DNA from: Kalaharituber pfeilii
Lineage: Eukaryota; Ascomycota; Pezizomycetes; Pezizales; Pezizaceae
Length of the DNA: 64,000 nt
NCBI GenBank assembly: GCA_015179045.1
Contig: WHUZ01000014.1
Coordinates: 806,001 to 870,000 of the forward strand
Reading direction: 5' to 3'
In this document: one piece after another, positions 4,141 to 56,376 of the stretch
How the letters are laid out: each line of letters begins with the position of its first letter
Position numbering within the stretch: the first letter of the stretch is position 1
Translations under genes and position numbers: made by a program
The notes under the pieces: model-generated
What the model saw: only the letters and a program-made list of their open reading frames with translations
Database searches by the model: none
What the model was told of the DNA's origin: nothing

Positions 4141-4217
4141 AGTGAAGTAGTTTTTTTTTTTTTCGGTCGGATAACCCTAAATACAGGCTACCAGTCTATG
4201 GCAGGGAAGTAAAGTAG
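4141..4217 (-). mobile_element. Mini-retroposon, form A stem-loop plus poly(A)
   Basis: A 57-bp insertion (4151-4207) read on the minus strand as CCCTGCCATAGACTGG, then GGTAGCC, AGGG and a poly(A) tail (poly-T at 4151-4163 on the plus strand). It is flanked by AGTGAAGTAG (4141-4150) and AGTAAAGTAG (4208-4217), a target-site duplication with one mismatch. The outer stem is CCCT/AGGG and the inner hairpin is formed by GGCTACC with its partner. It belongs to the family described at 19581. Confidence 0.75.
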
Positions 4218-5262
4218 GTTAGCTAAGGGTGAGAGCGCAGGATATACTTGAGGAGTTCAGAAAGGCAGAGGTCTGAGTTTAATGTCGATGCAAGGAAGCG
4301 TGAGAGGGTGCTGGTACTGCTGGAGGTCGAAAATAAAATCCTTGGTTACGAGACTAGTGCCAGCCATTGAAGAGTGCATTTTGCCTCAAATCGAAGTCAT
4401 GTGAGCTGACAATTGCCCAAGGAATGGAATGACTCCCCCGAGACTAACCTAATGGAAACTTCGTTACCAATTGAAATTAGCAACCAAAAATACAGTGAAT
4501 GATATTTATTATTATAGGTCTCTATGGTGGCATTGCAGGCCGGAGACGTAGTGTGGGTAGCTGGTGCTGCCTTCCGGTTTGAGAACTTGTATAATGCGAA
4601 TTCGAATATTCCCTAAACTAGGTGTTAAAATATATATCGCATTTTTACGATGAATTTCAAAGTACGATCTTTTTCTGGTGACAAACATTCCAAATATGTT
4701 TGTTTTCCAACTTGCAGTTTGCACGTTGGTAACTGTGTTTTCACCATGTAGCGGCGCACACCACGTAACGATGCACGTTTTACACCAAATCTGCACAACT
4801 CCAATGCCCGAAGTCTCGATAACCACAAGAGAGAGGTTTTGCAAACCTCGAACTTTTCAGGGCTGGGAAGAAGAATATGTTGCCTTAGCAACAATGTATG
4901 TATAAATGCCAAGTCTTCAAAATTTCCCTTCTAAAATCCAGAAGACTGACCCTTAAACTGTCATATTCCCATAACACTCAATTCTGCGGATATTTACATC
5001 AAGAAAAAGTAATAAATGAGCCAAAGCACCGCTCTATCTGCTCAAGAAAATTCTATTCCAGTACGATGTTGTGGGCGCTCATCATAGGCCCCTCAATCTC
5101 CGCCCCTCAATTCTGCTGCTGGTATATCACAACCTCCATCACAATCTACGCTAAAAATCTGATCCAGCTTGAATTCACCCAGATGGTACTGCCAAAAGGA
5201 GCCCAGTATGGAAATGTGGTTCTTTGTTCCTGCTCTCGCTCTTTAACTCTCCTCTGTAGCTA
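4218..5262. other. Intergenic, nothing recognised
   Basis: Overlapping short frames occur on both strands between 4.5 and 5.26 kb, but none has protein-like composition or splice support. I call nothing here. Confidence 0.35.
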
Positions 5263-5394
5263 GTGCTACGCGGTCACGTCGGTGGATGTACGCGCGCATA
5301 TGCGATGCAGGCGATATGCGACAGCAAAAGGCGTGGCAGTCGAATAAATGAGTGCTATATGAGCTATGCAGAGGACTTATTTTGCGAGCAGTTG

Positions 5395-5530
5395 GTGAAA
5401 TGGCTGCTGACTAAAATGGCTATCAAAACGGCTGCCAAAACAACAGTCAAAATAGCTGCCAGAAATTTACGGTCAGAGCATCTGCTAGAACGACGGCCAA
5501 AACAGCTGCGGAGGGACGGTCTAAAACAGG
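5395..5530 (+). repeat. Degenerate short tandem repeat around AAAAYRGCTGCC
   Basis: The stretch repeats variants of a 14-16 base motif such as AAAATGGCTATC, AAAACGGCTGCC, AAAATAGCTGCC and AAAACAGCTGCG. Copies are diverged and spacing is uneven. A similar motif set (AAAACGGCCTCC, GGAACAGCCTC) occurs at 60117-60210. It is probably an old minisatellite. The open frame across it is a by-product of the repeat. Confidence 0.45.
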
Positions 5531-5913
5531 TGCAGAACAACTGCTGCAGGTTGCTCACACTTGACTAGTAGCCTCGTCCCCAGCTTTGCTAGCACGTTGT
5601 CTAGAAGTGGATTAGTGCATGCCATACACTACATTAGCGCATAATTTGCATTAGTCAGGTGTCCGAATACTTTTGAAACTGGCTAGTAACCAAGAGGCTT
5701 CTTGCAATGCTACACCCTTGACCTTTCTACTGTAGTCTCTTCCTGCACTGTAGCCTTTTCCATACTCTATATACTACCACCTGTTCAGATTATACGTTAA
5801 TCGGGTCGCCGATGGTTGAGATATTTCAAATTTCGTTCACATGGAACCTGCCACCGTGTGCGCTCAGGTCGCTTTCACCAAGACTTTTGTTCAGGGACCT
5901 GTAGGTGCTCAAA

Positions 5914-6170
5914 CCTGATCCGGCCAGATGGGTCCCTGCCATAGGCTGGTAGGCCATTTGCATTCACAGTTTGCCTGCATTGTACGGAGTACGACTCCAG
6001 TCCTGGGTCTGTCTACTGTTTCCTCTCCCGCACTAGGTTCATCATCTCCGGTACTTCATCTGTGTGTAAGTACAGTGCTTGAAACCATTTGCCAAGATTT
6101 GTGGCGTGATCCCAGCTTTTCTTTTTTTTTCCCTCCACACGCGCCAGCCGCTCATTGGGCTATGGCAAGG
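5914..6170. mobile_element. Two remnants of form A and form B stem-loop elements
   Basis: At 5914-5955 the plus strand carries GGTCCCTGCCATAGGCTGG, the 5' half of form A, preceded by sequence like that upstream of the stem-loop at 15.8 kb, but the 3' half differs and no poly(A) follows. At 6118-6170 a T-rich run is followed by a diverged form B end on the minus strand (ATTGGGCTATGGCAAGG on the plus strand). Neither has a clear target duplication. Confidence 0.35.
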
Positions 6171-7043
6171 ACTGACCCTAGCATTTCTGAAACAAACTTT
6201 TGTTTTTGTCGACGAAATTAAGAGTTTGTATAAGAATTTATAAGAATTTCTGGCATAATTGTACGCTCAAGAGCACTTCTCTTTATGATATTGGTGGTGA
6301 TAATGGTCGTGAACTGCTGATATGCAAATGAAGCGCTAAATATTCACAATGTAGATGCTGCAGCTGATGCACTAGCAGTAACCCGAAAGTTTTTGATACT
6401 GCAGATATATGAAATCGAGGAGGTTGTGGAAATGCCAGGGTTATTCTCCCAGTTCCTCATTGTTGAGCACATTATCAGTTCCTTGATCAGGTAGTCTATA
6501 TCACTAGGAGCACTCAGGAACGAAGACTATCTGAGACAGATATACGCATGGGAGTGTGGGGTTTTGGTTCACAGTAGATAACAGCAATCCTAGATGCACT
6601 CACAGGCAGCAAATTTTTTAGAGGTTCCAATAGGCTTTCTTTTCTTATTCTCTTTTTGTTAGGTGGATATCTCCTGCCTTCATGTCTTAGAACTATCATC
6701 AAATCAACAACCGTGCACAGGAACAGATGAAAATGAAGAATCTCAAATATACACTAGATTCGATTCCCGCTAACCTACCAGTAGTCGCTCAACCAGGAAT
6801 CCACCTAAGGCAGAATTCTTAGGTTAGCGAGCAAATTCATGAGTGTAATTCCCCACCTCTAGGATAAGCCATCAAGAACACCTGTAAGTTTGCCTCCCCG
6901 CAGAGCGAATTAAGGAAATAGCTGTGATATGTCATTGGCAACTACGTTGCCAGTCTCAATTGGTATCATAACGGATTTTCCATTGGTTTGTTCAGGGCTG
7001 TTCTCGTAATATCTTGGTAATTTCTGAACAGATCCCGTGACGC
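6171..7043. other. Intergenic, nothing recognised
   Basis: No convincing frame or repeat seen between the form B remnant and the coding-like fragment at 7.04 kb. Confidence 0.35.
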
Positions 7044-7268
7044 TCAAAAAATGTTAATGTGACTCTGCCAACTTCGCCTTGACCATCCATCCCTCGACGC
7101 GATTTTATATTTTTCACAAATATCTGCATCCTTGTCCATGAAATCAGCCACTGGCCGGTACTGACCCTCTCCATATCTGAGCGACATCTCACATTCTTGC
7201 ATGTGCATACGACTCAGTCTGCTCTTGCTGCTCTCGGAGGCATGATGCTGCGATGTGGGCGAGCACAT
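7044..7268 (-). pseudogene. Coding-like fragment, copy 1 of a duplicated segment
   Basis: The minus strand reads MHMQECEMSLRYGEGQYRPV, then ADFMDKDADICEKYK and a W-rich segment (GWSRRSWQSHINIF). A second, more decayed copy lies at 7913-8070 in the same orientation, with GQYWPVVSLLIKDADI in place of GQYRPVADFMDKDADI. Conservation of a peptide between two diverged DNA copies argues that it once coded for protein, probably in a repeated element. The family is not recognised. Confidence 0.35.
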
Positions 7269-7585
7269 GGGCCCCGCATAAGGGGCGAATGAATACGTGC
7301 GATTCTTGTCGCAGTAAGTGAATTGTGAAGTTCCTCATCTTCTGTAAAAACACAAACTAAAGATAGTCGTCGATGATAATAGGTGAAGAGGGAAAAAAGC
7401 CTAGAACAATGCTTGAGACCGTGCAGGCAACACCTCGTCGTCCCACGCCCATGACCATGGTACACACACAAAGCCCTCTTCCCCAACATACAATAGCCAT
7501 AGGACTCAGTTCCCATTATCATTAGCTCGACACAGGCCAGAGTCTGCATCTTGGTCTCCAGGGCGCCATCATCGCTATCTGTTCT

Positions 7586-7634
7586 CCCTGCAATAGGCTG
7601 GAAGTCTGTATTTGGGGTTACGTGGCCGAAAAAA
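7586..7634 (+). mobile_element. Mini-retroposon, form A, diverged
   Basis: CCCTGCAATAGGCTGG, then GGGGTTACGTGG and a short A run. Flanking TATCTGTT (7576-7583) and TATCTATT (about 7635-7642) look like an imperfect target duplication. This is an old copy of the family at 19581. Confidence 0.5.
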
Positions 7635-7742
7635 TATCTATTTGCTCTCCGTTAGCAGTGCTCCCAATGCCCCTCCCCAGCGGGTCATTGATCGCAGTCT
7701 CTGTTTCGCCTCCTATATGATTCCCATTCGGCATACCTTAAT

Positions 7743-7793
7743 CTCGCCATAGCCTAGAAGGCGGCATGCGAGTAATGATATATATATAAAAGA
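7743..7793 (+). mobile_element. Mini-retroposon, form B
   Basis: CTCGCCATAGCCTAGAAGG, then GCATGCGAGTAATGATAT and a TA/A-rich tail. Outer stem CTCGC/GCGAG and inner pairing GCC/GGC are intact. Target duplication is unclear (CCTTAA on both sides at slightly different distances). Confidence 0.6.
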
Positions 7794-7912
7794 ATCCTTA
7801 AATCCACCTCAGCTCCGGATCTGATGCGCAGGAATGTTGCAGTTGAAGGCAGTACGCAGTAGTCTCAATGCATTTACTGGTGGGCATCAAAAATGAAACT
7901 AAGTGACTTCTC

Positions 7913-8070
7913 AGTATGTGAAGGTGCGGGAATTGGTAAGGCACGGGTTGATGGCTACACCAATATCTGCATCTTTGATCAGGAGACTAACCACTGGCCA
8001 GTATGGCCAATACAGTCAAACCGGTCATAACGTCGGGACCGGCGGGTTCTATCAAATAAGACAGGTTATT
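7913..8070 (-). pseudogene. Coding-like fragment, copy 2 of a duplicated segment
   Basis: Minus-strand translation gives GQYWPVVSLLIKDADI, matching GQYRPVADFMDKDADI of the copy at 7044-7268. A stop codon follows nearby and the rest is diverged. It is a relic of an unknown repeated coding sequence. Confidence 0.35.
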
Positions 8071-8229
8071 ATCCAGGTTGGAATGGAGAGGTCAAATTTT
8101 GTGCTATATACATGCAGTCAGAGCTATAGCAGATACGTACATTGGATAATAAACTATATACAGCAGCAAAATAAGAGGTAATAGATGCCTGTTTCAAAGG
8201 GGCACTTCATGAGATCACAAGGTATAGGA

Positions 8230-8400
8230 ACACCCTATTGAAATCGCATAAACCACTTGTCGATTGAACAATTCATTCTTAAGTTCTTCTAAAAACACCT
8301 GTAGCTCCCGTTGTTTAAGCTTTGAATGCTGCTGAGCATAACAGAATAGTTGGTACCGTTCAGCCTCAGTAGGATCTTCATATTCGCAACTACAACGCTT
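8230..8400 (-). pseudogene. Fragment of pogo-type transposase N-terminus
   Basis: On the minus strand the frame reads CEYEDPTEAERYQLFCYAQ, then QHSKLKQRELQVFLEELK and NELFNRQV. The sequence aligns with PTDAEQYQLFLHDQAHP, then ISQHKLQEWFQATFDKQI, from the pogo-type relic at 55.5-55.7 kb. The pattern resembles the N-terminal CENP-B-type helix-turn-helix of fungal pogo transposases. No downstream DDE domain is attached. Confidence 0.45.
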
Positions 8401-8417
8401 GGTGCTTAACCTTCGAA

Positions 8418-8694
8418 AGGGCAGCCCTTTTTTTTTTTTTTTTTTAAATCACGTAACCCCACTTGCAGCGCCAAGCCATGGCAGGGTCCCTGGGCAAGCC
8501 GGAGACAGGCATAACAAAGAAATTTCTATATACACATCCCCGTTCCACCCCCCCTCTCCCCTTCTAGAAACCTGATTCCAGAAACTTCCGGACGGTTCTT
8601 CTGGTTTCTGCATCAGGGAAGCTCCTCTATATCTCTCCACCTCTCCCCCCTCCCCTCTCCTCCACATCTTCGCAGCCCGGAGAGGGTAGCCCTT
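8418..8694 (-). mobile_element. 5'-truncated LINE-end retroposon, form A tail
   Basis: An insertion at 8430-8682, read on the minus strand, ending CCATGGCTTGGCGCTGCAAG, then GGGGTTACGTGATTT and poly(A). The upstream part (AGAAATTTC, a purine-rich GGAGAGGGG tract) is shared with the 24.6-kb copy and with the 3' untranslated region of the LINE at 50.9 kb. Flanks AGGGCAGCCCTT (8418-8429) and AGGGTAGCCCTT (8683-8694) are a 12-bp duplication with one mismatch. It has no coding capacity. Confidence 0.8.
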
Positions 8695-8753
8695 GCTGTC
8701 CCTTCTTATAGTCAATCCTGCGTGCCTTCCATCTATTGTCTAACTTGCTACAT

Positions 8754-9109
8754 TACACTCTCGATATAAGAATACCCGATATAAGAGTATGTTCGATGTA
8801 AGAATGTGTGCGACCCTCTCCCCTACAGATTAAGAATATTTCGTTTAAGGATATTCTTATTTTTTTCTGCTTAGTCATGTACAATCTTATTTTACAACTG
8901 CATATGCAATGCCTAACTGCGTTCAGTGCCGCATACGGATTGCATATCATCCCCTGCCGATGCAATACCATTGCATAACCGACCTCACTTGTCAGGCCTT
9001 ACTCCATACAGTTAGTATAGGGACTGCCAAGCAATTTTAGTATAAGAACATCTACAATATGATGTAAGAATATACACCCTCCCGAGGACATTCTTATATC
9101 GAGAGTGTA
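8754..9109. mobile_element. TA-flanked MITE with 18-bp inverted ends
   Basis: The element spans 8756-9107 (352 bp) between TA dinucleotides. It begins CACTCTCGATATAAGAAT and ends with the exact reverse complement. Inside the left end the motif CGATATAAGA recurs (CGATATAAGAGT, CGATGTAAGAAT), and partial copies occur near the right end. TA target and short inverted ends fit a non-autonomous Tc1/mariner or pogo derivative. No transposase is encoded. Confidence 0.85.
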
Positions 9110-9119
9110 CTGTTATGAT

Positions 9120-10689: not shown

Positions 10690-10701
10690 GAGATTACCTG
10701 G

Positions 10702-10735
<34 letters not shown>

Positions 10736-11246
10736 TCAATACTCGCGTGCCGCCCAACGGGCTATGGGGAGGGTCTTATATTAACTAAAACAAAAAAAAA
10801 CAAAAAACAAAACACATCAAACCTCAACTACGTACAAGTGATGCCCGTGATGCCCGCGGTGCCTCTCAGTGATGCGGGAGTCGTCCGGTATCCCCTACTT
10901 CCGTCCCCTCTCCGGCTCATACAGGACCGATCTGAACCATCGCCCACTAAGCCTGACCCTCTCGACCTCCATCTCCTTTCCCAAATACACCACCACCGAA
11001 CTTGTCTTCTTCCCCTCCTCCTCGAGTATTGTCCTCTTCCTTAACCAACGAATCCCGCTTATCTTCCCCAGTTCCCGATTCGCGGCTTCCAGCCAAAGTT
11101 TGATCTTCCCCAAATCCTTCCGCAAGGCGATCCCGTGTATTACGATGCCGTATTTTCCTCTGGTGGTGGCATCGGTTTTGGCTGGTGAAGAGGTGGCGGT
11201 GGGACCCTTCCGGGTAGCTGCCAGGTGACGCTGAGATTACCTGGTC
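10690..11246 (-). mobile_element. ORF1-only LINE derivative (HAL1-like), form B tail
   Basis: The insertion spans 10704-11232 with GAGATTACCTGGTC duplicated at 10690-10703 and 11233-11246. On the minus strand it begins inside a frame reading KYGIVIHGIALRKDLGKIK, KISGIRWLRKRTILEEEGKK and SSVVVYLGKEMEVERVRLSG, which resembles the gag-like ORF1 segment of fungal LINEs (IRWLR followed by GK, SS and VVV). The frame stops at about 10895. Downstream is not a zinc knuckle or reverse transcriptase but GT-rich untranslated DNA, then the form B stem-loop (CATAGCCCGTTGGGCGG, then CACGCGAGTATTGATAT) and 27 A. It is either a half-LINE family or an internally deleted LINE. Confidence 0.7.
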
Positions 11247-11417: not shown

Positions 11418-11494
11418 CAGCGTCAGAACCTCGCAATAGCCCATAGGGCGGCATGCGAGTAATGATATTAAAAAAAAAAAAAAACAGCGTCAGA
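11418..11494 (+). mobile_element. Mini-retroposon, minimal form B
   Basis: A 57-bp insertion (11428-11484) of ACCTCGCAATAGCCCATAGG, then GCGGCATGCGAGTAATGATA and A-tail, between two copies of CAGCGTCAGA (11418-11427 and 11485-11494). It begins exactly at the base of the stem: CTCGC/GCGAG outer, GCCC/GGGC inner. No other sequence is carried. Confidence 0.85.
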
Positions 11495-11804
11495 TCCATA
11501 CAAATCACGGGCGTACCCCCAGCAGCACATGGTGGTTGACATATATCGGGCGTTTGCGCCTACGAACACATTGATAACTAAGCTGGAGGTGGTCTTTGCC
11601 ACCCTACATAATGATAGGTAGCGTTGCTATACCACGCCTGCCCAGACTCCAATGGACGACTTCGCGGGGGGTGAATCTCACAAAGTGGATTTAGAGTACG
11701 CAGATTATACCTCATTCCACGCTTGCCAAAGTTGGATTCTTCATTGTGATGTCGAGATAAAAGCAAACTAAAGTCGCATGATTTCATCTCCTCAGACTCA
11801 AGCT

Positions 11805-12730
11805 TACTGTAGTTCACCACTTTCCCGGACACCCCACTTTCCCGGACACCCCACTTTCCCGGACACCCCACTTTCCCGGACACCCCACTTTCCCGGACAC
11901 CCCACTTTCCCGGACACATTTACCACCCAAACTGCGCAACTTTCGCACTCAATATCTCAACAACCACAACAGCATTTGTGAATGCGCTTTGTATAGCTAT
12001 TAGACAAAGTGTAATTCTTGCTATCAAGCACTTTTCCTTCATCAAAAATTGTGGGTGCAAAGAGATTATGGCTTGTCGCATTTTTGTTGGAAGGCTTGGC
12101 ATTTATTTGTATGGGATCTCCATACAAAACGTTCATAAGACTTGAATATAGTCCTACTCTTCAACGCTAATTACAATAGCTATGATAGTATATGTCAAGA
12201 ATCACCTGAAGAGTTATAGTAAGGTGCTGCATTTAGTTTACTTTCATTTGTTGAATTGTAGAGTTGGTGTACAACTATCTACTTTTGGGTGTGTTTCTCG
12301 TACAAATGGTTTCTATGGGAAATATGAATATTGTGAATAATTTCACAACCGCTACAGGTATTACTTAACTACGTTGCTCATAGTTTCCAACTGAGTGATC
12401 CTATTGAATGTGAGTGTCTGAGTTTTTTTCATGAATTGATTGCATGTGTAGCATGCAGAATTCGGGGGTGGTGACATTTGTATGGAGATCCCATACAAAT
12501 AAATGCCAAGCCTTCCAACAAAAATGCGACAAGCCATAATCCCTTTGCACCCACAATTTTTGATGAAGAAAAAGTGCTAGATAGCAAGAATTACACTTTG
12601 TCTAATAGCTATACAAAGCGCATTCACAAATGCTGTTGTGGTTGTTGAGATATTGAGTGCGAAGTTTGAGCAGTTTTGGTGGTAAATGTGTCCGGGAAAG
12701 TGGGGTCCGGGAAAGTGGTAAACTACAGTA
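11805..12730. mobile_element. Fold-back DNA element with long inverted arms, TA target
   Basis: A 922-bp element (11807-12728) between TA dinucleotides. It starts CTGTAGTTCACCACTTTCCC and ends with the matching inverted sequence. The arms (11807-12128 and 12477-12728) are near-identical inverted copies. They differ mainly in the number of 17-bp repeats near the tip: six on the left, fewer than two on the right. The 348-bp centre has no open frame. The TA target suggests mobilisation by a Tc1/mariner or pogo transposase. It could form a very long hairpin RNA or DNA. Confidence 0.85.
11817..11918 (+). repeat. 17-bp tandem repeat, 6 copies
   Basis: Six exact head-to-tail copies of CCACTTTCCCGGACACC starting at 11817, 11834, 11851, 11868, 11885 and 11902. 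They lie at the tip of the left arm of the fold-back element. The right arm holds only about one and a half units in inverted orientation, so copy number changed after the arms formed. Subterminal repeats of this kind can be transposase binding sites (inference). Confidence 0.95.
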
Positions 12731-14222: not shown

Positions 14223-15754
14223 TATCAAGCCGGGATGTCTCCGGACAGTCCTTTTGGACTGTCCTGACTGTCCTGACTGTCCCGAAGGTTGCATAACTGA
14301 CTGTCCCGTCTTGCATATGGTGCGGCTGAGCTCACTGTCTTGGTGTGGCAGACTGTCTGCAGATATTTTCGGTGCAGGGTAATCAGTGCGCCTGACTCTC
14401 CGAACTGGGAAATTTTTCTTTGATAATTCGCACTGTAGCTACTGGTTTTGAGATTTTCATTTTTGCAAGACTCCAACACAATTACAAAGGCTTCACGCAC
14501 TTTACATCCCAGATATTTTCCAGCCGATACATATATTCATATAGTACTCGCGAGTCCTTATTTAATTTTTCTGCCCTATACTTGCTTTGCGCTCACTAAA
14601 ATGTCACTCTCCACTGCAACCAGTACCTTGAGTGCGAAACAGACCTGGACTCCACACCCGAGCCTTCCAAAGGCGCTTGTTTCGGTAGTAATAAAGGTTG
14701 TAGAAGAGATGCCTGAATTACATTGTGAAGACCCTATGGATGGCGAGCAATATGCATGGCCAAATATGGCTTTAGATAGACTCCGGGACTATGCATATAC
14801 CAAAGGCTTCGCTGTGGTGACTTTGAGTGGGTCTGAAAAGAAAGGTCGTATCCGCTATGGATGTGTACATCATGGCAAGCCCCGAGATACTAGAAAACTA
14901 GATGCAGAGAATTCTGAAGGTATGTCAATTAAGACTTATGTACTAATATATATATAGTACAGCGCAGACACCAGACCAACACACAAGCCAAAGAATGTCT
15001 ATGGGCAATATCTATCAATTTGCGAGTAGATATAGATAGTGGAACAGATACTTGGGTGCTTGCGATATCAGATAAAATCCATACTCATCCTTTGGCACCA
15101 AATCCATTAATATATATCCAGCATAAACGTCGCAATACTGATTATCAGCAAGCAGTAGGAGATGCTATACAGTATAGGTGAGCAGGATTGAGTTACAATA
15201 TGTCCTTACACCTTCGTACAGAAGAAGGAATGCAGTTGAATCCTAAAGCATACTATAACAGCCGTCATAGCAGTAAAATTCCTATTACTGTTGAGGAAAG
15301 AATCAATCGGATATTAAGAGAACTAACAACAGCTGGTTGTCATATCACTGATCATTTCACAGTACCAACAGTACCTCATCACTTTGCACCAGTCGTATCT
15401 TCCAGCATATTGCCCCAACGTAAAAATAAAGAAAAAGTAGCTGGTCGTACCTTGACAGGAGCTGAAATGGCAGAAAGGCAGCGAAAGTGGGCTCGGACAG
15501 AGAGTGTGGAGCGTAATAAGAATTGTATCACTGTATCTTCTACTGCATCACTATGATGTATCATTCTGTATTTCGTACAATCATGTATTTAGGTACTTCG
15601 CTTTTTTAATGAATTCTCGCTAGTGGCCAAGTTTGAGACAGGCAGCTCAGCCGCACCATATGCAAGATGGGACAGTCAGTTATGCAACCTTCGGGACAGT
15701 CAGGACAGTCAGGACAGTCCAAAAGGACTGTCCGGAGACATCCCGGTATCAAGC
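14223..15754 (+). mobile_element. DNA transposon with 103-bp terminal inverted repeats
   Basis: The element covers about 14230-15746 and is flanked by TATCAAG(C) at 14223-14230 and 15747-15754, a 7-8 bp duplication (one base is ambiguous because the end repeats it). The terminal inverted repeats, 14230-14332 and 15644-15746, match over 103 bp with one mismatch. Each contains a perfect hairpin GGACAGTCC-TTTT-GGACTGTCC and direct repeats of CTGACTGTC. Target size and long ends fit a Mutator-like or hAT-type element. It carries one gene with a FAR1-like domain and no visible DDE core, so it may be non-autonomous. Confidence 0.9.
14601..15556 (+). CDS. FAR1-like DNA-binding protein of the TIR element, TGA in frame
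   Basis: Start ATG 14601 (MSLSTATSTLSAKQTW). Exon 1 is 14601-14919. A 38-nt intron (GTATGT, CTAAT branch, TATAG end) runs 14920-14957, and exon 2 starts at 14958. The spliced protein has RDYAYTKGFAVVTLSGSEKK, IRYGCVHHGKPRDTRK, then KECLWAISINLRVD and TWVLAISDKIHTHPL. This Cys-Cys-His-His layout with the W-x-L spacing is that of FAR1/WRKY-GCM1 domains found at the N-terminus of Mutator-type transposases. TGA at 15179-15181 ends a 180-residue product. The same frame then continues open to TGA at 15554-15556 with a charged, H/P-containing tail, so either this is a nonsense mutation or the short form is used. The catalytic transposase domain is missing. Probable role: binding the element's own ends (inference). 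Confidence 0.6.
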
Positions 15755-15845
15755 GTGTACATAGTGTAGATAAGTAGCTGCTTTAACCTGACCCGGGTAT
15801 ACGGGTCCCTGCCATAGGCTGGTAGCCTGTAAGCGGGGTTACGTG

Positions 15846-15876
<31 letters not shown>

Positions 15877-16626: not shown

Positions 16627-16714
16627 AGTAGGGAGGCTTGCCCTGCCATAGCGAGTAGCAAGCGGGGTTATGTGATACTACCTAAAAAAAAAAAAAAAAA
16701 AGTAGGGAGGCTTG
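16627..16714 (+). mobile_element. Mini-retroposon, minimal form A
   Basis: A 60-bp insertion (16641-16700) starting CCCTGCCATAGCGAGTAGC, then AAGCGGGGTTATGTGATA and 18 A. It lies between AGTAGGGAGGCTTG at 16627-16640 and 16701-16714 (14 bp, identical). The outer stem CCCTGC/GCGGGG is intact. Confidence 0.9.
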
Positions 16715-16881: not shown

Positions 16882-16969
16882 TTCTCAGTACTGTAGGTTT
16901 TTTTTTTTTTTTTTTTTTCTTTCACATGACCCCGCATGCAGCTGTTCGCCAAGGCAGGGCTTCTCAGTA
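16882..16969 (-). mobile_element. Mini-retroposon, minimal form A
   Basis: Minus-strand copy with poly-T at 16898-16918 on the plus strand. It reads GCCCTGCCTTGGCGAACAGC, then TGCATGCGGGGTCATGTGAA and poly(A). TTCTCAGTA occurs on both sides (16882-16890 and 16961-16969), but the left copy is seven bases from the tail, so the duplication is only tentative. The 5' end again falls at the base of the stem. Confidence 0.75.
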
Positions 16970-17985: not shown

Positions 17986-18966
17986 CTTTTTTTTTTTTTT
18001 TTTTTATATCATTACTCGCATGCCGCCCTAGGGGCTATAGCGAGGTTATGTACATATGAGATAACTAGATAGGAGATAAATATAGCAAAGGGAACGAATT
18101 AAGCATCAAACACTGGCTCCTCCCTACTCTTTTCCTGCCCATTCCAGCATGATCGCTAGTGTGTCCGCTCCCTCCTCCTCCGCCTCCGGGGGTTTTTTCA
18201 CCGTAGCCTCCCCCTGGCCATTTCTGGTCCCACGTCCGGCACTCTTCCCAGATGTGTTTCGTCGTTTCTGCCCCTCCTCCGCACCAGCGGCATTCCGGGC
18301 TCTCCGCCTTGTTGATTCTGTGCTTCCATGCTCGGAGGCCCTTGCCTCCTAGTAGCCCCGCTAGGGTGCTGTCCGTCCGCCTAGATGTTTCAGTGGTCGG
18401 TAGCTCAAGCCCAGTCGACTCCTGTCTTCGGCTCTTTGGGCCCATGTTTCTGCGCGCATCCCGACTTCGGTGACCACCCCCGTTTGATATGGTAAGAAGG
18501 CGCCGATTTTGGCCGCTCTGTCTGCTCTCTCGTTTCCCTCCGTGCCCTTGTGGGCTTTGATCCACATCACTGCCACATCTAACCCCCCCGTTTGTCTCTT
18601 CTCCCAGGCCGTCCTGACCGTGTGAGCTGCCCCCCCCCCGGGTGTTGGGAGTCTTTGGGATATCATTTTCAGTCTCTGGATAGCCACCTTTAAGTCGGTC
18701 AACAGCAAGATCTCCTCATCTCCTTCGTCCAAGGCTCTTGCCATGGCGATAAGCTCGGCGTCACTCACTGTGGCCCTGGGGCCTAGGTAGTGTGATTCCG
18801 GTTTGTCTTTCCATAGTCCCACCCCCGTCCTCCCTTCGATTCTGCTGCCGGCCGTGTACACCGTCTTCCAGCCCTGGTCTTCTTCTTCCTCAATCCTTCT
18901 TTCCCATTCGTGCTTTTCTGCCTGGGCGTCTAGGGTGAGAGAGAATGCATGCAGTCCTACATGCAC
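17986..18966 (-). mobile_element. 5'-truncated LINE, form B tail, with decayed RNase H
   Basis: Minus-strand LINE end. Poly-T at 17987-18005 (plus strand) is followed by the form B stem-loop (CCTCGCTATAGCCCCTAGGG, then GCATGCGAGTAATGATAT on the minus strand). Upstream are RNase H and a Cys-rich end: EDQGWKTVYTAGSRIEG, SDAELIAMARALDEG, LLTDLKVAIQRLKM, VMWIKAHKGTEGNERADRAA, SPECRWCGGGAETTKHIW. The first catalytic Asp is Ala (TAGS instead of TDGS), and the frame shifts between the RNase H part (18361-18966) and the Cys-rich part (about 18120-18400). No clear target duplication was found, so the 5' boundary near 18966 is approximate. Confidence 0.85.
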
Positions 18967-19566: not shown

Positions 19567-19654
19567 AGGTTGGTAAAAGTGCCCTGCCATGGCGAAAAGC
19601 TGCATGCGGGGTCACGTGAAATAAAAAAAAAAAAAAAAAAAGGTTGGTAAAAGT
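19567..19654 (+). mobile_element. Mini-retroposon, minimal form A (type example)
   Basis: A 60-bp insertion (19581-19640) of GCCCTGCCATGGCGAAAAGC, then TGCATGCGGGGTCACGTGAA and poly(A). It is bracketed by identical 14-bp AGGTTGGTAAAAGT at 19567-19580 and 19641-19654. The outer stem CCCTGC/GCGGGG pairs fully, with one T:G. The whole insertion is a stem-loop plus tail. The same sequence ends the LINE at 50.9 kb, so it moved by target-primed reverse transcription (inference from tail plus duplication). Confidence 0.95.
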
Positions 19655-20612: not shown

Positions 20613-21412
20613 CTATTAACAGAGGAAGAAGAAAAACAACCTAATGCAAAATCCGAATGTAACACTCATGCTTTACACTCTAGGTTACCACTCATCCTTC
20701 TACACACTGGAACAGCCCTATCTGGACCTCGGCATGCCGCCACTTGTTGTTATTGCCTGAGCACTACTAGCTACATAAATGGAGTATAGTTACACTCGTA
20801 GTGAATATATACAGGCTTTATTCCAGGTAATTTATTACATTTTAAGCCAGCAACACTTGCATTATCTAGATACTTACTCTATAGCATGGGAAAGACCTCA
20901 TATGCATTCTGCGTATCTGAAATCTGAAATATATTGTTGTCCGGTGTTTCATGATCATCTTTGGTCACGTGCTATGCGTCCCAGGATGCCGGTTGCACTA
21001 GTATCGAAACGTTTCAGATTGCAGAGATATAGACTTCTCGCAATGGAAGGACGAAGTCATGTAGATTAGGGTTAATAATTTAAGGGAGAGTAAGTTTCCA
21101 ATCCTCCTTGAAGAAAAACAGAATTTAAATAGTTACATAGGATATATTTTTGCATACACATCGATCATAGAAAGTATCTATGTAATGAGTTCGCAGCGTC
21201 ATAACACGGTAATTGTCCAATAGGACTGAAGGTCAGAATCATAGTCTCACGCTAAAGTGGTTGTGTTTATATGTCTGACCCTCCAGATGCTACAGTCATT
21301 TGGGTATATTAGTGCTTCGCTGCGTCGCACGTACATGCGCGCTGACCACATGTGATTTTAACTCTTGAAACCGAGTTTGAGTAAAAGCTCCAATGGGGCT
21401 AAACCTGTATTT
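20613..21412. other. Intergenic, one weak plus-strand frame
   Basis: A 96-codon frame at 20779-21069 ends RFRLQRYRLLAMEGRSHVD. It has mixed composition, no domain and no flanking exons, so I do not call it a gene. Confidence 0.25.
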
Positions 21413-21664
21413 CTTTTTTTTTTTTTTTTTATATCATTAATCACATGCCGCCCTAAGGTCTATGGCGATATTTAGTTACATAAAGGAAAGTAAAGAAGAA
21501 TAGTAGGTAGAAAATTTACGTGCGTCCTGTCCCGCCCATTCCAACAGATCCATCAGCGCCCCGCTTGTATGCGGTGAAACTAGGTTATTCCTTTTTCCCG
21601 CCTTACTACTAGAGGCTGCAGGATTGTTCATAGAGCCGACGACATTTGTAGAACTGTATTGCAT
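21413..21664 (-). mobile_element. LINE 3' fragment, form B tail
   Basis: Poly-T (21413-21430) is followed by the form B stem-loop in minus orientation (ATCGCCATAGACCTTAGGG, then CATGTGATTAATGATAT). Upstream on the minus strand a 62-residue frame ends SGALMDLLEWAGQDARKF, like the C-terminus of the 18-kb LINE (AIMLEWAGKE). It is therefore a very short 5'-truncated LINE copy. A weak duplication CTGTATT flanks it. The stem has A:T at the second pair where the 11.4-kb copy has C:G. Confidence 0.65.
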
Positions 21665-24538: not shown

Positions 24539-24574
24539 AATATCATACTCGTGTGCTGCCCTATAGGTTATGGC

Positions 24575-24608
<34 letters not shown>

Positions 24609-24880
24609 TACATCACATAACCCCGCTTGCAGCGCCAAGCCATGGCAGGGTCCCTGGGCAAGCCCTCGAAGCCCGGAGACAGGCTTAACAAACAAAGAAA
24701 TTTCTATCTACTTCTAGAACCTGAGGCTCCACTATATCTCCCCCTCTCCCCCCTCCCCTCTTCTCCACACTTTCGCATCCCGGCAAGCAAACTTCCCCGA
24801 CGGCAAATTTTTTCCCGACCCGGGTCGGCAAACCGCATGGCGCACTAAAAACCCTCCAATAGGTTATGGCGAGATAGGCT
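24539..24880 (-). mobile_element. Form B copy split by a form A LINE-end insertion
   Basis: A form B stem-loop in minus orientation (24539-24576, ATATCATACTCGTGTGCTG on the plus strand) is interrupted by a 282-bp form A insertion (24577-24858). The insertion duplicated 14 bp of the form B copy itself: ATAGGTTATGGCGA at 24563-24576 and 24859-24872. The inserted copy has poly-T (24577-24606), the form A end (GCTTGCAGCGCCAAGCCATG on the plus strand) and a body shared with 8430-8682, extending further 5' into a GC-rich part (GACCCGGGTCGGC). No protein is encoded. Confidence 0.9.
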
Positions 24881-36063: not shown

Positions 36064-36095
<32 letters not shown>

Positions 36096-36149
36096 CATTA
36101 ATCGCTTGCCGCCCTATGGGCTATGGCGATGAAGATGCGAGGTTGAATT
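36052..36149 (-). mobile_element. Mini-retroposon, minimal form B
   Basis: A 70-bp insertion (36066-36135) with a long poly-T on the plus strand. On the minus strand it reads ATCGCCATAGCCCATAGGG, then CGGCAAGCGATTAATGATA and poly(A). Identical 14-bp TGCGAGGTTGAATT flanks it at 36052-36065 and 36136-36149. The stem is ATCGC/GCGAT, a compensated A:T in place of C:G of the 11.4-kb copy. Confidence 0.92.
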
Positions 36150-48452: not shown

Positions 48453-48547
<95 letters not shown>

Positions 48548-50924: not shown

Positions 50925-50937
50925 CTGCTTACTCAAG

Positions 50938-50974
<37 letters not shown>

Positions 50975-53596
50975 TCACGTTACCCCGCTTGCAGCGCTAA
51001 GCCATGGCAGGGTCCCTGGGCAATGTTGAAGTGTATATTCCTCCTTGTCCTTTTCTCGAGCTCATTTTAGAGTTTGGTCCGCGCTAATTCAATGCCCTGC
51101 TTCCTAAAACAGCATTTCCTCACTCGAGTTGCCACACCTGTCCTGCTTCCTTAAGCAGCAATTCCAGTTCCTACAGGCTAAACGAAATTTCTATCTACAT
51201 GACGTCACCTCCCCCTCTCCGCCCCCCGCCGCTACAACTTGAGTCCAGAAAAGAACCTTTCCAACTCATCCCACTCCTCTCCATTCTCCGCAGTCCTTTT
51301 CCAATTCTTTTCCATGTCACTCCACCTCTTGAAGCCTTCTGGACGGTTCCCTACTCCACTCCATGACCTTCCCTCCTCCGAACCCCTCTATTTCCCTTCT
51401 CTCCTTCCTCCACGCCTTTATCCTCTGGCGCACCCCACTCCCGGTGGCCACCTCTCTCCCCCTCTGCGCCGTCCCCTTCTTTGCCATCTCGTCTGCCATC
51501 TCGTTACCTGCGATTCCAATGTGAGCTTTCACCCACATCAGTCTCACCTCCCCCCCCCCTTTCTCTTTCTCCGAGCGACCTTGTTCACCACCTCCCTCAC
51601 GTCCTCCGTCTTCCCCTTGCCCTCCCTGCCCGCCTTCTGGATCGCCATAACAGCTGCTTCAGAGTCCAGGCATACCAGCAATGGTACTTCTTCCTCCACG
51701 CTCTCTAGTGCTCTCCTTATCCCTCTCACCTCTCCATCAAATACCGTCGCCGTTTTCCCCACCACTTCTGCCACTGCTGCCGACCTTCCCCACACTCCTG
51801 CCCCCACCTTGCTATCCTCGATTTTGCTGCCATCTGAGAAAAGAATTGCTCTCCCCCTTCCGGCCTCCTCCACCGAGGTCTTCCATTCTTCTCTCCCTCC
51901 CCTTTTCCTCCCCAGCCTTTCCGCGCACTCCACCTCCACCTTCTCGCACCCCCTCCCTATGATACCCTCTCCTCCTCCTCTGAGAACCTTGACCACTGCC
52001 CCTGCCCACGGTCCAAAACACTCTCATACCCATCCCCTTCTCCTAGTGCCCACTGCACCCCCCAATCCCTCCAATTTCTTGCATCCTCTTCCCTCTCCTC
52101 GTTCCCCCTTCTGAAATCCCCTGTACATAAATCTGCAAGCTCGGGTGGTGCCTCCACTTCCCGTACCATCGCTCTTGCCTGCGCTCCGTCTAAAATCACC
52201 TCCAACCCCTCCACTCCGCACATTGCATTCACCCCCTCTACCCCTGTGCCCCTTCCTCCTCCGGCTGCCTTCTTCAGTGCCTGCAGCTGAACCTTTTCCA
52301 TCTCCCTCCTCCACTCCTTCTGCCCCCTCCACCCTATCTCACTGCCCCACATGGCCACCGCCCTAATCATGCCCGTATAAATCTTCCCCACGCCAAAGGT
52401 TATCATCTCCCACTTCGACTCTTCGAGTGGGATTCGATCCTCCTCTGCCACCACCTTTGCCTCCTTCTTCACTTTCTCTCTCAGCCTCGCCATGTCCCAA
52501 TAGCTATGCCAGTCTAGGATGGTCACTGCTATATCGTCCACGTATGAGGGTGCCTCAATCTCTACCCCCGTCGCTATCTCCCTAACTTCCCTCTCGATCT
52601 TCTCCATTGTTGGTGCCATAAAGATCAGGAAAAGTACTGGCGATAAGGGGACCCTTGTGGGACCCCCACGTTCGCCTTTCCTCTTCCTCTCACTCTCCCA
52701 TCCCACTCCACGCTGAATTCCCTCATCCCCTTGAAGTCCTCCAGCCACCCCCTCTTTCTTCTCGCCTCCTTGCTCCCCTTCTCTTCTATCCTCCTCAATA
52801 CCACCTCCTTTCTGACGATGTTAAACCCCCCCTTCACATTTGCTGTGACCCACGCTACACCTCCCCCCCTGTGCAGGCATCGCTGTGTTTTCGTCACTAC
52901 CCTCGCCATAGCCTGCACCGCGTTTCTCCCCTTTCTGGCCCCCAACTGCAGTCTATGGAAAAGTCCAGCCTCTTTCTGGAGCCTATTTGCCATGATCTTC
53001 TCTCCGATCTTACCTATACATTTGATCAGGTTGATGGGTCTCCATGCCTTTGTTGTCTTGATGTTTTTGCCTGGCTTTGGTATCATGATGACCTTCATCT
53101 CCTTCCACTCCCTGGGTGTTGAGTTCTGGATCCACTTCTCTGCAATTTCACCTACCAGCTGGCCTCCCAATGGGGTCTTCAATGCCGCTTTAATGAGGCG
53201 GTACCCGATTCCATCTGGGCCCGGTGCTGATGTGTTCTTTGTTCTTTTCAGGGCCTCTCTCACCTCCCCCTCCACTCTCCTTCTCTCCCCCTCGCTCACG
53301 TCCCGCCTGCCCCTCTCTTCTCCTCCAACCTCCTCACCCCCCCCCTCTCTTCTTCTTCGAAGGCAAAATTCCTCTTTACTAATGCTTCTGCCTTCTCTGA
53401 GTCTCCCACCAGCTCCCTCCCCTCTTCATCTGTAAGGGCCCCCATCTTATCTCCTCTCCCGAAGGGGTCCTTTGCTACTCTCACTAACCTCCATGGATCG
53501 CTGATCCCCTCTTCCTCCACGAAATCCCTCCAGCACCTTCTCTTCTCTTCTCAGATCTTCCACTTCATCTTCTGCACCGCCGCTGCTTACTCAAGT
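50925..53596 (-). mobile_element. 5'-truncated Tad/I-like LINE, form A tail
   Basis: A 2.65-kb insertion (50938/50939-53582) flanked by CTGCTTACTCAAGT at 50925-50938 and 53583-53596. On the minus strand it carries the reverse transcriptase, RNase H, a 3' untranslated region with AGAAATTTC and purine-rich tracts, and the form A stem-loop (CCATGGCTTAGCGCTGCAAG, then CGGGGTAACGTGATTT) before the tail at 50939-50973. The endonuclease and ORF1 are missing. It is the longest LINE copy in the window and ties the form A mini-retroposons to an RT-bearing parent. Confidence 0.92.
51317..53585 (-). pseudogene. LINE reverse transcriptase and RNase H, frameshifted
   Basis: Order on the minus strand: DPWRLVRVAKDPFGRGDK (linker before RT), SAPGPDGIGYRLIKAAL, MIPKPGK, AWRPINLIKCIGKIGEK, ANVKGGFNIV (motif A), GVPQGSP, then after a frameshift LSPVLFLIFMAP and SYVDDIAVTI (motif C intact). 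A second frame change leads to RNase H: AILFSDGSKIED, TVFDGEVRGIRRALESV, LLVCLDSEAAVMAIQK and, after another shift at a C run near 51550, LMWVKAHIGIAGNEMADEMA. The motif A Asp and the following Asp are Asn (AAT, AAC), both explicable by G-to-A changes. The copy is dead as an enzyme. Confidence 0.9.
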
Positions 53597-53791
53597 GGCC
53601 ATATAACATCTGAACCAATCAGCCAGTGCTGCCAACAGTTTAGGAAATACCTCATTATATGTGTTTCTATTTTATAGCTTGAGAGAATCTCCACACAATT
53701 CTTTTACACTGCATAATAGACCAGTATTCTCTGCATATGTATCAGCGAAGAGGTAAGCTTCAATATAACGGCGCCATTCTCTGCATAATAT

Positions 53792-53924
53792 CCTGAGCAC
53801 CACCAAATATCCTGAGCACCACCAAATATCCTGAGCACCACCAAATATCCTGAGCACCACCAAATATCCTGAGCACCACCAAATATCCTGAGCACCACCA
53901 AATATCCTGAGCACCACCAAATAT
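53792..53924 (+). repeat. 19-bp tandem repeat, 7 copies
   Basis: Seven exact units of CCTGAGCACCACCAAATAT beginning at 53792 with a 19-bp period, ending before CCTATACTTTC. They adjoin the right inverted arm of the interrupted element. Frames through the array on the minus strand are repeat artefacts. There are no unique spacers, so it is not a CRISPR array. Confidence 0.95.
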
Positions 53925-55304
53925 CCTATACTTTCTGAATATTGGCAACAAAGTATAAACTAGAATCATTGACACATGGTGACTCAAGGTATCGATATTG
54001 TATATACCAAATAGGTCATCACTTAAATGCTACAAATAACCCTAGAAAATGTGCGCAAAATAATTCAACATATTATCCCAATTTGAGCTCACTTGAGGGT
54101 CAGTTGCACTCGTAGTAATTTTTTATTGTGGTATTCGGAAAGGGGGCAATATGCCGGTAGCATGCGTTACTCCTGTATCGGGAGTTGCAGGGTGCAATGG
54201 GAAACGAAATTATGAAATCCAAGCCAATATCCCACAACGTGTAAGTCAAACGTGTAAGTCAATGCGCATTTATAAAATGTACTTGCATTTGACCATACAC
54301 AGAGCTTGGATTGCCTGTCTTCTGAACAATGCCAACATTGACGGGTTCGGACCCGAACCATTCACCGATGCATTGGTAGGTGGTCCGAACAATACAACTA
54401 TAGCCAGGATTGGCGTATGGTTCCGCTGAATCAGCTGAATTTATGTGACGCACTGTGAGGTGGGTTGACCGAGATGACAACTTCAAGTTCGTCAGCAAAA
54501 ATCGCCAGGCTCATCACGTACGCTTCAGATTCACTTCATTCGCTGAAACATTAAAAAAAAAAATAGATAGCAAAAATCAAAAAACGCTGCCCTGGTTGCA
54601 CTAGGTTTTAATCACATGGAACTAGAGTATTAATATGTAAAGGACATTCATCTCGTCAGTATACAGTACTGTTTCTAAAGATATATTGTAACTTTGAATT
54701 AATCAGTCATGCACCACTGCTAGATGGGTTGAGATTTATCGCATTGGCGAATGGTTCCGTCTGCGCTACATTGATGAATAAGTTGAACCATCCAGCACTT
54801 CGAACCATTCGGCAAGATTGGTGGATAGGCTGCCCTATTGCCCAATTGTATCCATTGATGTATGAGTCAGAACAGAAATATACCATTTACATAATTGCCC
54901 CGAGTTATCCTGATATGCGTCGTGTCTTCTAAGTCGTGATGATCCTTCAAATAAATCTAGGCCAACATCATGTCGACAGTCTGTAATTGGCACAGTCACG
55001 CCAGACTTGACGATTTGGTGAATGCGTTTCATGATGCTAGTTCCTAGTATGTCTAAATGAGTCTGCAGTTTCTGGATAGACTTGTCAGGCAATGTTTCTT
55101 GCTTTTTTATCTCAATTCTTTGGCGGCCATCGTTCATGACTTTGAGACTTACTGATCCACGCAGCACTCATCCATTGCCGGGTATTGATCCAGAATGGAA
55201 GCAACCGTACCCTGCCAAAGTGTATTGGACTATGAGCATAGTCCAAAGCCTCCAGAATATAATGATAGTTATATACATATGTATGCACTTGCATTGAGCC
55301 ACCC
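53925..55304. other. Intergenic; one weak minus-strand frame
   Basis: A minus-strand frame at 54835-55167 (starting MLRGSVSLKVMNDGRQRIEI) has fairly protein-like composition, but no domain or exon partner. Nothing else is seen. Confidence 0.25.
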
Positions 55305-55504
55305 TACAGTCGAACCTCTCATATTGGATATCGTTGGGGGCGGGCCTTTTATCCAATATCGCCTCATATCCAGTAAGAGAGGTTTATTAAGCGGAGAGTC
55401 TATCTACATACAAATAGTGTCAATGCATGAATAGGAGTGAGTTAACAATATACAGGCTAGATAATAGAGTAAACAAGGTAGGCTAAGTGCCTTAAGATTT
55501 AGAG

Positions 55505-55720
55505 GAGATGCCTTTGCGGTCCTGAAGAAGTGCCCTGAGGTCCGGCGCTGCGCAATTTGCTTATCAAATGTAGCTTGAAACCATTCTTGCAGCTTATGCT
55601 GAGAAATTCAAGGATGTGCTTGATCATGGAGAAAAAGTTGGTACTGTTCCGCATCTGTAGGGATCCTGATACCTGCGGCGTGAGGAGGAGCTTGAGTTTG
55701 AGGCCATGATTGCAGATACC
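55505..55720 (-). pseudogene. Decayed pogo transposase N-terminus
   Basis: The minus strand reads IPTDAEQYQLFLHDQAHP, a TGA, then ISQHKLQEWFQATFDKQI and AQRRTSGHFFRTAKASPL. The pattern is like an N-terminal CENP-B-type helix-turn-helix and matches the fragment at 8230-8400. The DDE domain is absent. Confidence 0.5.
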
Positions 55721-55985
55721 AGAGTATTGGTGCCAGAGTGTTCGAGTTTGAGTACAATTCAGATATTCTTCACATGATAGCTTGAGACAAAGGCCTATAA
55801 ACTATATTCGCTTCACATATTTTGCCCACGAGTGTCATATACGAAGGGTTAGTTGATTGCGCTATCCAATATGACAGGGAAACATTGTTAGTGATACCCC
55901 GGTCTGGGCAGCCGCACAGGCTATCCATCCAATAATGCCAAATATCCAATATTCCCCATAGTCCAGAGCTCTGGAGAAGACCCCC

Positions 55986-56059
55986 TATCCAATATCGTCT
56001 CGGCATAGACTTAGGGCAGTATGCGAGGAATGATATAAAAAAAAAAAAATATCCAATAT
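55986..56059 (+). mobile_element. Mini-retroposon, form B, inside the pogo relic
   Basis: A 54-bp insertion (55996-56049) reading CTCGGCATAGACTTAGGGC, then AGTATGCGAGGAATGATAT and A-tail, between TATCCAATAT at 55986-55995 and 56050-56059. The target is one of the element's own subterminal motifs, so the motif's other copies make the duplication slightly less certain. Confidence 0.75.
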
Positions 56060-56097
56060 CCAATAAGCAAGGATTCAATATGAGAGGTTCGACTGTA

Positions 56098-56301
56098 GTT
56101 AACGTCTAGTTACGAGGCTGGTACCACCCCATTGATTATTAGCTACTGCTAGAAAGATTCTTAATAAAAGCACTGGACTCAATGAAGCACTCGAGCTACT
56201 GTAGCTAAGGGGGAATAGTGAACTCCACAGCTGAAGTCCCGGACCCTAGTGCAGTCATACAGAGACCTAGTTTAGCCACAGAATGAAACCTCCAAGAGTG
56301 T
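56098..56301. other. Short spacer
   Basis: Nothing recognised between the pogo relic and the next insertion. Confidence 0.3.
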
Positions 56302-56376
56302 GCCTGCTCCCTGCCATAGGCTTGTAGCTTGTATGCGGTCTTATGTGAACCAAAAAAAAAAAAAAAAAAAAAAAAA
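56302..56376 (+). mobile_element. Mini-retroposon, form A, diverged
   Basis: CTCCCTGCCATAGGCTTGT, then AGCTTGTATGCGGTCTTATG and about 24 A. The 5' end is again at the stem base, but no target duplication was found, so the insertion may be longer or old. Confidence 0.65.

What the first reader, a model, noticed from the sequence alone, without database searches (positions are those of the whole stretch)
4151..56376. Family of about ten 50-75 bp retroposons that are just one stem-loop plus poly(A)
Insertions at 4151, 7586, 7743, 11428, 16641, 16898, 19581, 36066, 55996 and 56302 consist of about 40 nt that fold into a stem-loop, then a poly(A) tail. Those at 11428, 16641, 19581 and 36066 have perfect 10-14 bp target-site duplications; others are imperfect. 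They occur on both strands and nearly all begin at the base of the stem. Mobile units this small, well below usual SINE length, would be unusual. They either form a true micro-SINE family or mark a fixed stop point of LINE reverse transcription. Insertions, tails and duplications are seen directly; the mechanism is inferred.
Basis: partly seen in the sequence, partly recalled or inferred. Interest (0 to 1): 0.88.

Follow-up and report, generated by a model that had tools for sequence, protein, structure and literature searches.

The report
Hairpin-only micro-retroposons of LINE origin
This eukaryotic genome carries what appear to be hundreds of mobile DNA insertions that are only a roughly 40-base RNA hairpin plus a run of A's, probably copied by a LINE-type reverse transcriptase and cut off sharply at the base of the hairpin; one lineage seems to have spread in this tiny form by itself.

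Summary
The 40-nt units are 3'-terminal hairpins of two LINE groups (RT or RNase H remnants precede two long copies in the window). Exact 3'-arm-plus-tail patterns occur 402 (type B) and 259 (type A) times in the 78-Mb genome, 0 in reversed controls. In 80 copies sampled by 3' arm alone, an unclassified search finds target duplications in 29 (swapped flanks: 3 of 240); 15 of the 29 begin within -2..+3 nt of the stem base (16 with L033 read by hand), 10 at scattered points +50 to +240, the rest inside. Smooth 5' truncation does not fit. These carry a diagnostic TCA (184 copies, against 3 with A), have no fixed base at -2, and gave 0 exact matches to LINE upstream sequence. This suggests a micro-SINE lineage rather than mere LINE debris. 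Best reading: hairpin-delimited reverse transcription makes such units from several LINE subfamilies, and one has become self-perpetuating. Whether the RT or the template's 5' end sets the limit is unresolved. No RNA data exist here.

The parts
4151..4207 (-). micro copy, type A1 hairpin plus A13 tail
   Evidence: TSD 9 of 10, below threshold
7586..7634 (+). micro copy, type A1, tail of six A's
   Evidence: TSD weak
7743..7794 (+). type B hairpin, degenerate AT/A tail
   Evidence: no TSD test
11428..11484 (+). micro copy, type B, TSD CAGCGTCAGA
16641..16701 (+). micro copy, type A, TSD of 14 ending in G
16898..16960 (-). micro copy with G at -1 and TCA (GCCCTGCC...TCATGTGA), TSD only with an indel
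19581..19641 (+). micro copy with G at -1 and TCA (GCCCTGCC...TCACGTGA), TSD of 14 ending before the G
36064..36135 (-). micro copy, type B2 (AUCGC/GCGAU stem), starts 5 nt upstream of stem, TSD of 14
55997..56049 (+). micro copy, type B, TSD TATCCAATATC
56309..56376 (+). type A1 hairpin plus A25, no TSD found
15774..15876 (+). longer A1 copy (upstream repeat shared with 5901-5952) ending in the same hairpin and tail
17987..18966 (-). LINE remnant: RNase H ORF 18361-18966 followed by type B hairpin and poly(A)
   Evidence: PF00075, 1e-12
50938..53425 (-). LINE remnant: RVT_1 ORFs 51957-53299, RNase H-like stretch near 51320-51658 (by eye), type A3 hairpin and tail
24577..24650 (-). A3 hairpin plus A30; LINE-type upstream sequence continues above it
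8428..8486 (-). A3 hairpin plus tail of a long copy
10704..10773 (-). type B hairpin plus A29; upstream T-rich, length class uncertain
21410..21469 (-). type B2 hairpin plus tail with LINE-like upstream (by eye)

Best explanation
These are hairpin-delimited retroposons. The LINE enzyme of this genome recognises a conserved 3' hairpin next to an A-run, primes on the A-run at a nicked target, and copies the hairpin. In a large share of events the cDNA ends 0-2 nt beyond the stem, giving a unit of about 40 nt plus A-tail flanked by duplications of about 10-14 bp. This happens from several LINE subfamilies (A1, A2, A3, B). One such unit, with G at -1 and TCA, CATGC and GAAAAGC variants, has spread as its own lineage: a micro-SINE that is the LINE tail and nothing else. 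Since no Pol III box was found in it, I infer that it is copied from read-through transcripts, its 5' end set by the hairpin and its 3' end by the A-run. Shown on samples: anatomy, duplications, the sharp 5' end. Shown by genome-wide counts: lineage-specific base, lack of exact LINE context. Inferred: LINE enzyme in trans, read-through source, hairpin as limiter, that uninspected G copies are micro.
For: Unclassified TSD search on all 80 sampled copies: 29 score >= 9 (swapped flanks 3 of 240), 15 of 29 within -2..+3 of the stem (P about 2e-18 under a uniform spread over 300 nt). Among 45 micro candidates with tails 30 pass (17 of 26, 13 of 19; swapped means 0 and 0.15), 26 of 30 within -2..+3 by script, 28 after hand reading. 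Stem-base copies occur with A1, A2, A3 and B hairpins and mostly carry the LINE's own base at -1: T (L009:8484), A (L053, L086, L087), C or AC (six type B). G lineage: 326 non-A copies, 97 of 100 listed G; 276 with A; TCA in 184 G copies, 3 with A; G copies have T at -2 in 142 and G in 69; of 100 listed G-TCA copies T 51, G 21, A or C 28; LINE upstream joined to G-TCA: 0 exact, 5 at one mismatch. Type B hairpin: 11 cells changed on both sides against 2.8 in shuffles. No A or B box in the two sequences tested.
Against: 15 of 45 tested candidates lack a scored TSD. Four type B copies begin in the loop or 3' arm (L016, L020, L026, L061; two TSD-confirmed), so the end point is not exclusive. The number of hairpin pairs with a change on both sides (2) does not exceed shuffles (1.5; 238 of 500). 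18 copies with G at -1 were seen with flanks: 15 micro, 1 long (L044, TTA), 1 probably long (L039), 1 unclear (first copy in L037, with TCA, preceded by a LINE-like CAGGGGCCCTGCCATGG piece): a LINE-like G tail, perhaps a parent, is thus not excluded. A at -1 is not proof of a long copy: 3 of the 27 fetched A copies are micro. RVT_1 frames include LTR elements and were not sorted, so an intact LINE was not shown. No transcripts, second genome or empty sites. Two of the four short hairpins folded (A2, A3) are within 1 SD of shuffles.
Confidence: 0.58

Rival explanations
1. Fixed end point on LINE RNA only: every micro copy comes straight from a LINE transcript whose copying ends at the hairpin base; the G/TCA variants come from a minor LINE sublineage with few long copies.
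For: Stem-base copies do come from A1, A3, A2 (with A at -1) and B LINEs. Long copies with G at -1 exist (L044; up to 5), and the first copy in L037 has TCA next to a LINE-like piece.
Against: 0 exact LINE-context matches against 184 G-TCA copies, while copies with A at -1, mostly long in the sample, number 276.
Confidence: 0.22
2. Template-side origin: the enzyme copies short 3' fragments of LINE RNA whose 5' end was made by an exo- or endonuclease halted or guided by the hairpin; copies starting in the loop come from cuts at unpaired bases.
For: 5' ends sit mostly at unpaired positions: just outside the stem, and in or next to the loop of type B (L020 by TSD; L016 and L061 by eye). A stop after the whole hairpin has been copied is not the usual place for an RT pause (general knowledge).
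Against: L026 starts inside the predicted inner stem; numbers inside the hairpin are small (4 type B and 1 type A of 80). Needs a further account for the G lineage.
Confidence: 0.35
3. Classical SINE logic with an external promoter: one or a few genes make a short RNA starting at G, and the copies are its dead offspring.
For: Near-constant 5' G, diagnostic variants in many insertions.
Against: The same 5' limit is seen for LINE subfamilies without the G; no internal Pol III box in the sequences tested; no source gene was found, though none was searched for beyond the counts.
Confidence: 0.2
4. Ordinary 5' truncation of LINE copies with a smooth length decay.
For: 10 of 29 TSD-scored ends are scattered from +50 to +240.
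Against: 15 of 29 TSD-scored ends of the 80 sampled copies fall in a 6-nt window.
Confidence: 0.03

Closest known systems
Stringent-type LINE/SINE pairs (eel and zebrafish LINEs; plant L1 with maize and sorghum SINEs), PMC4176376 (passages) and PMC3747384 (passages and one section)
   Same: 3' hairpin shared by LINE and non-autonomous partner, compensatory stem changes in the plant case, LINE protein recognition of the hairpin in zebrafish
   Different: SINE 5' ends there come from tRNA, 5S or 7SL RNA with Pol III promoters; here the unit is the tail alone
Fungal SINEs with Tad1-type tails (SINE2-1_BG with Tad1-24_BG, table in PMC3747384; AfuSINE2-1a, PMC5063351; passages)
   Same: SINE 3' end similar to that of a LINE; 4-14 bp duplications in A. 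fumigatus
   Different: tRNA heads with degenerate A and B boxes, 140-493 bp
snoRNA-derived short retroposon of platypus (one sentence in PMC3747384)
   Same: short retroposon without internal Pol III promoter
   Different: has a snoRNA head; said there not to go through many rounds, whereas a lineage is inferred here
R2 non-autonomous internally deleted elements (PMC3414825, title and abstract start)
   Same: small non-autonomous element using LINE 3' sequence; R2 lives from 28S co-transcripts
   Different: R2 makes its 5' end with a 5' ribozyme, and that the deleted forms keep it is recalled; R2 is site-specific
5'-truncated LINE copies (PMC3747384 gives 100-1,000 bp)
   Same: LINE 3' end, duplications
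   Different: Sharp end at the hairpin base and a population with a base rarely found in LINE context

Membership tests
SINE | non-autonomous, A-tailed, target duplications, many copies | tested here: met
   (duplications on samples)
SINE | 3' end shared with a LINE | tested here: met
SINE | small-RNA head with internal Pol III promoter | tested here: not met
   no A or B box by consensus in one G and one B sequence; no tRNA or Rfam gathering match in the window
SINE | own lineage with diagnostic variants | tested here: met
   TCA 184 with G against 3 with A; parent not fully excluded
5'-truncated LINE copies | variable 5' ends with continuous spread | tested here: not met
   (sample of 80)
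5'-truncated LINE copies | sequence found in the parent LINE | tested here: inconclusive
   met for A- and T-context and type B copies; 0 exact LINE-context matches for G-TCA
Stringent-type LINE | conserved 3' hairpin with compensatory changes | tested here: met
   type B: 96.2% of cells paired (shuffles 92.9), C-G to A-U and to U-A changes; 38 of 52 distinct hairpins used; number of covarying pairs not above shuffles; type A not counted
Stringent-type LINE | LINE protein binds the hairpin | not testable with these tools
   needs protein assay
Tad1-type LINE | RT and RNase H domains | tested here: inconclusive
   PF00078 and PF00075 on different remnants; fits Tad1 but is not specific to it
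Tad1-type LINE | placement in an RT tree, endonuclease domain | not tested
   that this genome's LINE is Tad1-like is recalled, from no call

The most novel reading that the evidence does not exclude
A promoterless, headless SINE lineage of about 41 nt whose two ends are set by the reverse transcription step (hairpin base and A-run), not by transcription, so that any transcript running through a copy can be mobilised with the same boundaries: a minimal self-delimiting mobile unit.
Probability: 0.33. Interest if true: 0.92.

Novelty: new variant of a known kind. Interest (0 to 1): 0.78.

Why it matters
SINEs are normally thought to need a promoter-bearing head to supply RNA with a defined 5' end. 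A lineage made of the LINE recognition hairpin alone would show how small a sequence a LINE enzyme can spread. It would make testable how a hairpin fixes the end of first-strand synthesis, and it would offer a dense set of very small insertions that repeat maskers may overlook.

Tried and rejected
Ordinary 5' truncation: rejected on the sampled 5'-end spectrum. Segmental duplication of micro copies: rejected for those with their own flanks and duplications; L021 and L023 do look like paralogous copies of one site. Pol III SINE: no A or B box. BLAST with the 319-nt LINE A2 end gave no length spectrum, because only 40 of 1301 first-look candidates were scored, the best first. Protein search with the RT ORF gave 18 unnamed relatives and no organism. 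Dropped or moved rows: L039 and L030, first counted as micro and as truncated inside the hairpin, score duplications about 234 nt upstream of the stem and are treated as long (L039 stays in the 26 as a failure). Two sample candidates without a tail (20604, 7743) were not tested. Hand readings changed L033 (-5 to +2), L042 (+4 to +1), L036, L095 and L010:7946 (to 0); only the first two change the count, 26 to 28 of 30. The first P value used a hand tally of 27 ends; replace it. The homology threshold for type B was inflated by long copies in the null; type B classes were then set by eye on upstream LINE motifs. Covariation used 38 of 52 distinct type B hairpins; truncated and length-variant ones were left out. 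No print of such a unit was found by searches (no relevant hit) or in listings 16, 52, 53, 59, 66, 72; subscription papers and Repbase were not available.
Full report
Setting. The window is contig C46, bases 806001-870000, of an unnamed 78.03-Mb, 360-contig genome. Degenerate remnants with reverse transcriptase and RNase H domains lie in it. Of 1113 first-look candidates for RVT_1 in the genome 150 were scored, many without a stop, in frames up to 1290 aa; RVT_1 covers LTR elements too and these were not sorted. RT plus RNase H would fit a fungal Tad1-type LINE; this is recalled, not tested.

The units. Two tail types occur. Type A: (G/A/T)CCCTGCCATGGCGAACAGCTGCAAGCGGGGTTACGTGA followed by AAT or the like and poly(A), with subtypes A1 (GGCTGGTAGCC inner stem), A2 and A3. 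Type B: ACCTCGCCATAGCCCATAGGGCGGCATGCGAGTAATGATAT and poly(A). They fold as an outer stem of 5-6 bp and an inner stem; the fold energies are not remarkable against shuffles for A2 and A3 (z -0.8 and +0.4), more so for B and A1 (-1.7 and -2.4). On 38 of 52 distinct type B hairpins, C-G goes to A-U at the base and to U-A next to the loop: 11 cells with both sides changed against 2.8 in shuffles (0 of 500 reach it), 96.2% of cells paired against 92.9; but the number of such pairs (2) and of pair types (6) is not clearly higher than in shuffles (1.5 and 5.5). Both types are ends of longer elements: in the window a B tail follows an RNase H ORF (17987-18966, minus) and an A3 tail follows RT ORFs (50938-53425, minus).

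Sampling. Exact patterns of the 3' arm with tail found 402 type B places and 259 type A places, none with the pattern reversed. From the top of these lists, leaving out places already held, I fetched 40 of 402 and 40 of 259 with 300 upstream bases. The pattern favours well-kept copies and clean tails but no 5' end upstream of the arm. By upstream homology, duplications and eye the 40 B copies are 27 long, 9 at the stem base, 4 inside the hairpin; the 40 A copies are 23 long, 16 at the stem base, 1 inside.

Duplications. First, without any classes, the best duplication in about 330 upstream bases was sought in all 80 copies: 29 score 9 or more, against 3 of 240 with flanks swapped. Of the 29, 15 start within -2..+3 of the stem (16 with L033, whose match runs on into the hairpin by chance), 3 others inside the hairpin (L020 -15, L026 -18, L037 -10, the last A-rich), and 10 lie at +50, +71, +83, +121, +142, +212, +234, +234, +237 and +240. 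Under a uniform spread over 300 nt, 15 of 29 in 6 nt has P about 2e-18. The other 51 copies give no scored end; many probably begin beyond the fetched 300 nt. Second, near the stem only: of 26 pattern-sampled micro candidates 17 pass (swapped: 0 in 200 rounds), of 19 further copies from the window, loci and by-place pieces 13 pass (swapped mean 0.15, at most 1), of 6 candidates inside the hairpin 3 pass (swapped mean 0.23). Of the 30 that pass in the first two sets 26 lie within -2..+3 by script, 28 after hand reading; with hand readings the offsets are +1 in 12, 0 in 8, +2 in 5. The two left out are +5 (36066) and +11 (L011:9491).

The base next to the stem. Stem-base copies of A1 have T, of A3 and two of A2 have A, of B mostly C or AC: the base of the respective LINE. 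So the copy usually includes one or two templated bases beyond the stem. But most A2-like micro copies have G, where the LINE has A. In the fetched A copies -1 is G in 14, T in 4, A in 3 of 26 micro copies (5 without an intact CCCTG), and A in 24, G in 2 (L044 and the moved L039), T in 2 of 32 others (4 without).

The G lineage. Over the whole genome the pattern with a non-A base before the stem occurs 326 times, and 97 of the 100 listed have G; with A it occurs 276 times, and the 66 rows printed with letters all read CAGC, AAGC, TTA. TCA instead of TTA occurs in 184 G copies and 3 A copies. The base at -2 of G copies is T in 142 and G in 69, and in 100 listed G-TCA copies T 51, G 21, A or C 28: the base at -2 is not fixed, apart from a T preference; in the few copies where it can be read, that T belongs to the target duplication. 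The LINE upstream (GGTCCAGGG) joined to G-TCA occurs 0 times exactly and 5 times with one mismatch; at least two of the five are G-TTA copies listed. A LINE with diverged upstream would escape this test. Eighteen copies with G at -1 were seen with flanks: 15 micro, L044 long, L039 probably long, and the first copy of L037 (with TCA) unclear, as a LINE-like CAGGGGCCCTGCCATGG piece precedes it. A diagnostic base shared by many copies and rare in LINE context is what a lineage copying itself would show; most of these copies were counted, not read.

Mechanism. Shown: hairpin, A-run, duplications, sharp 5' limit on samples; lineage-specific base by counts. Inferred: the LINE enzyme in trans, since tails are shared; and read-through templates, since neither an A box nor a B box is present in the two sequences tested. 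Two accounts of the 5' limit stay open: the enzyme lets go after the hairpin it holds, or the template RNA ends there after decay halted by the hairpin. Type B copies that start in the loop (L020; L016 and L061 by eye) lean to the second; L026, inside the inner stem, does not.

Known relatives. LINE-SINE pairs sharing a 3' hairpin are established (PMC4176376 passages; PMC3747384 passages and one section), with fungal examples sharing Tad1-type tails (table in PMC3747384; PMC5063351 passages). The fungal SINEs named there have tRNA heads. A platypus snoRNA-derived retroposon without Pol III promoter is mentioned in PMC3747384. Internally deleted R2 elements are the nearest case of a small element living from co-transcripts (PMC3414825, title and abstract start). 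Searches for a hairpin-only or shortest SINE gave nothing relevant.

Verdict.

Noticed in passing
11800-11934 and 53768-53946: Tandem arrays of 17-bp (CCACTTTCCCGGACACC) and 19-bp (AATATCCTGAGCACCACCA) units.
   Followed up: no
11899-12128 and 12477-12706: Inverted repeat of 230 nt, 97% complementary, 348 nt apart: a possible DNA transposon or hairpin locus.
   Followed up: no
14230-14340 and 15636-15746: Inverted repeat of 111 nt, 97% complementary, between a LINE RNase H ORF and the A1 tail at 15876.
   Followed up: no
24541-24650: A type B hairpin lies directly after the poly(A) of an A3 tail: a possible insertion into, or next to, an A-run.
   Followed up: partly
L037: Several A-type hairpin pieces in tandem: a partial LINE-like one, a G-TCA one, and after an A-run a third truncated inside the hairpin.
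   Followed up: partly
L030: Long type B copy whose hairpin 5' half is repeated, as if the copying jumped within the hairpin.
   Followed up: no
L009-L015: Hairpin matches are uneven: 8 and 7 in two 10-kb pieces, 2 and 1 in two others, none in three.
   Followed up: no
genome-wide, -2 of G copies: T is over-represented (142, against 326 non-A copies in all) just before the G: a possible second-strand cleavage or microhomology preference.
   Followed up: partly
50938-50974: The A3 LINE tail reads T13 then A24, an odd mixed tail.
   Followed up: no
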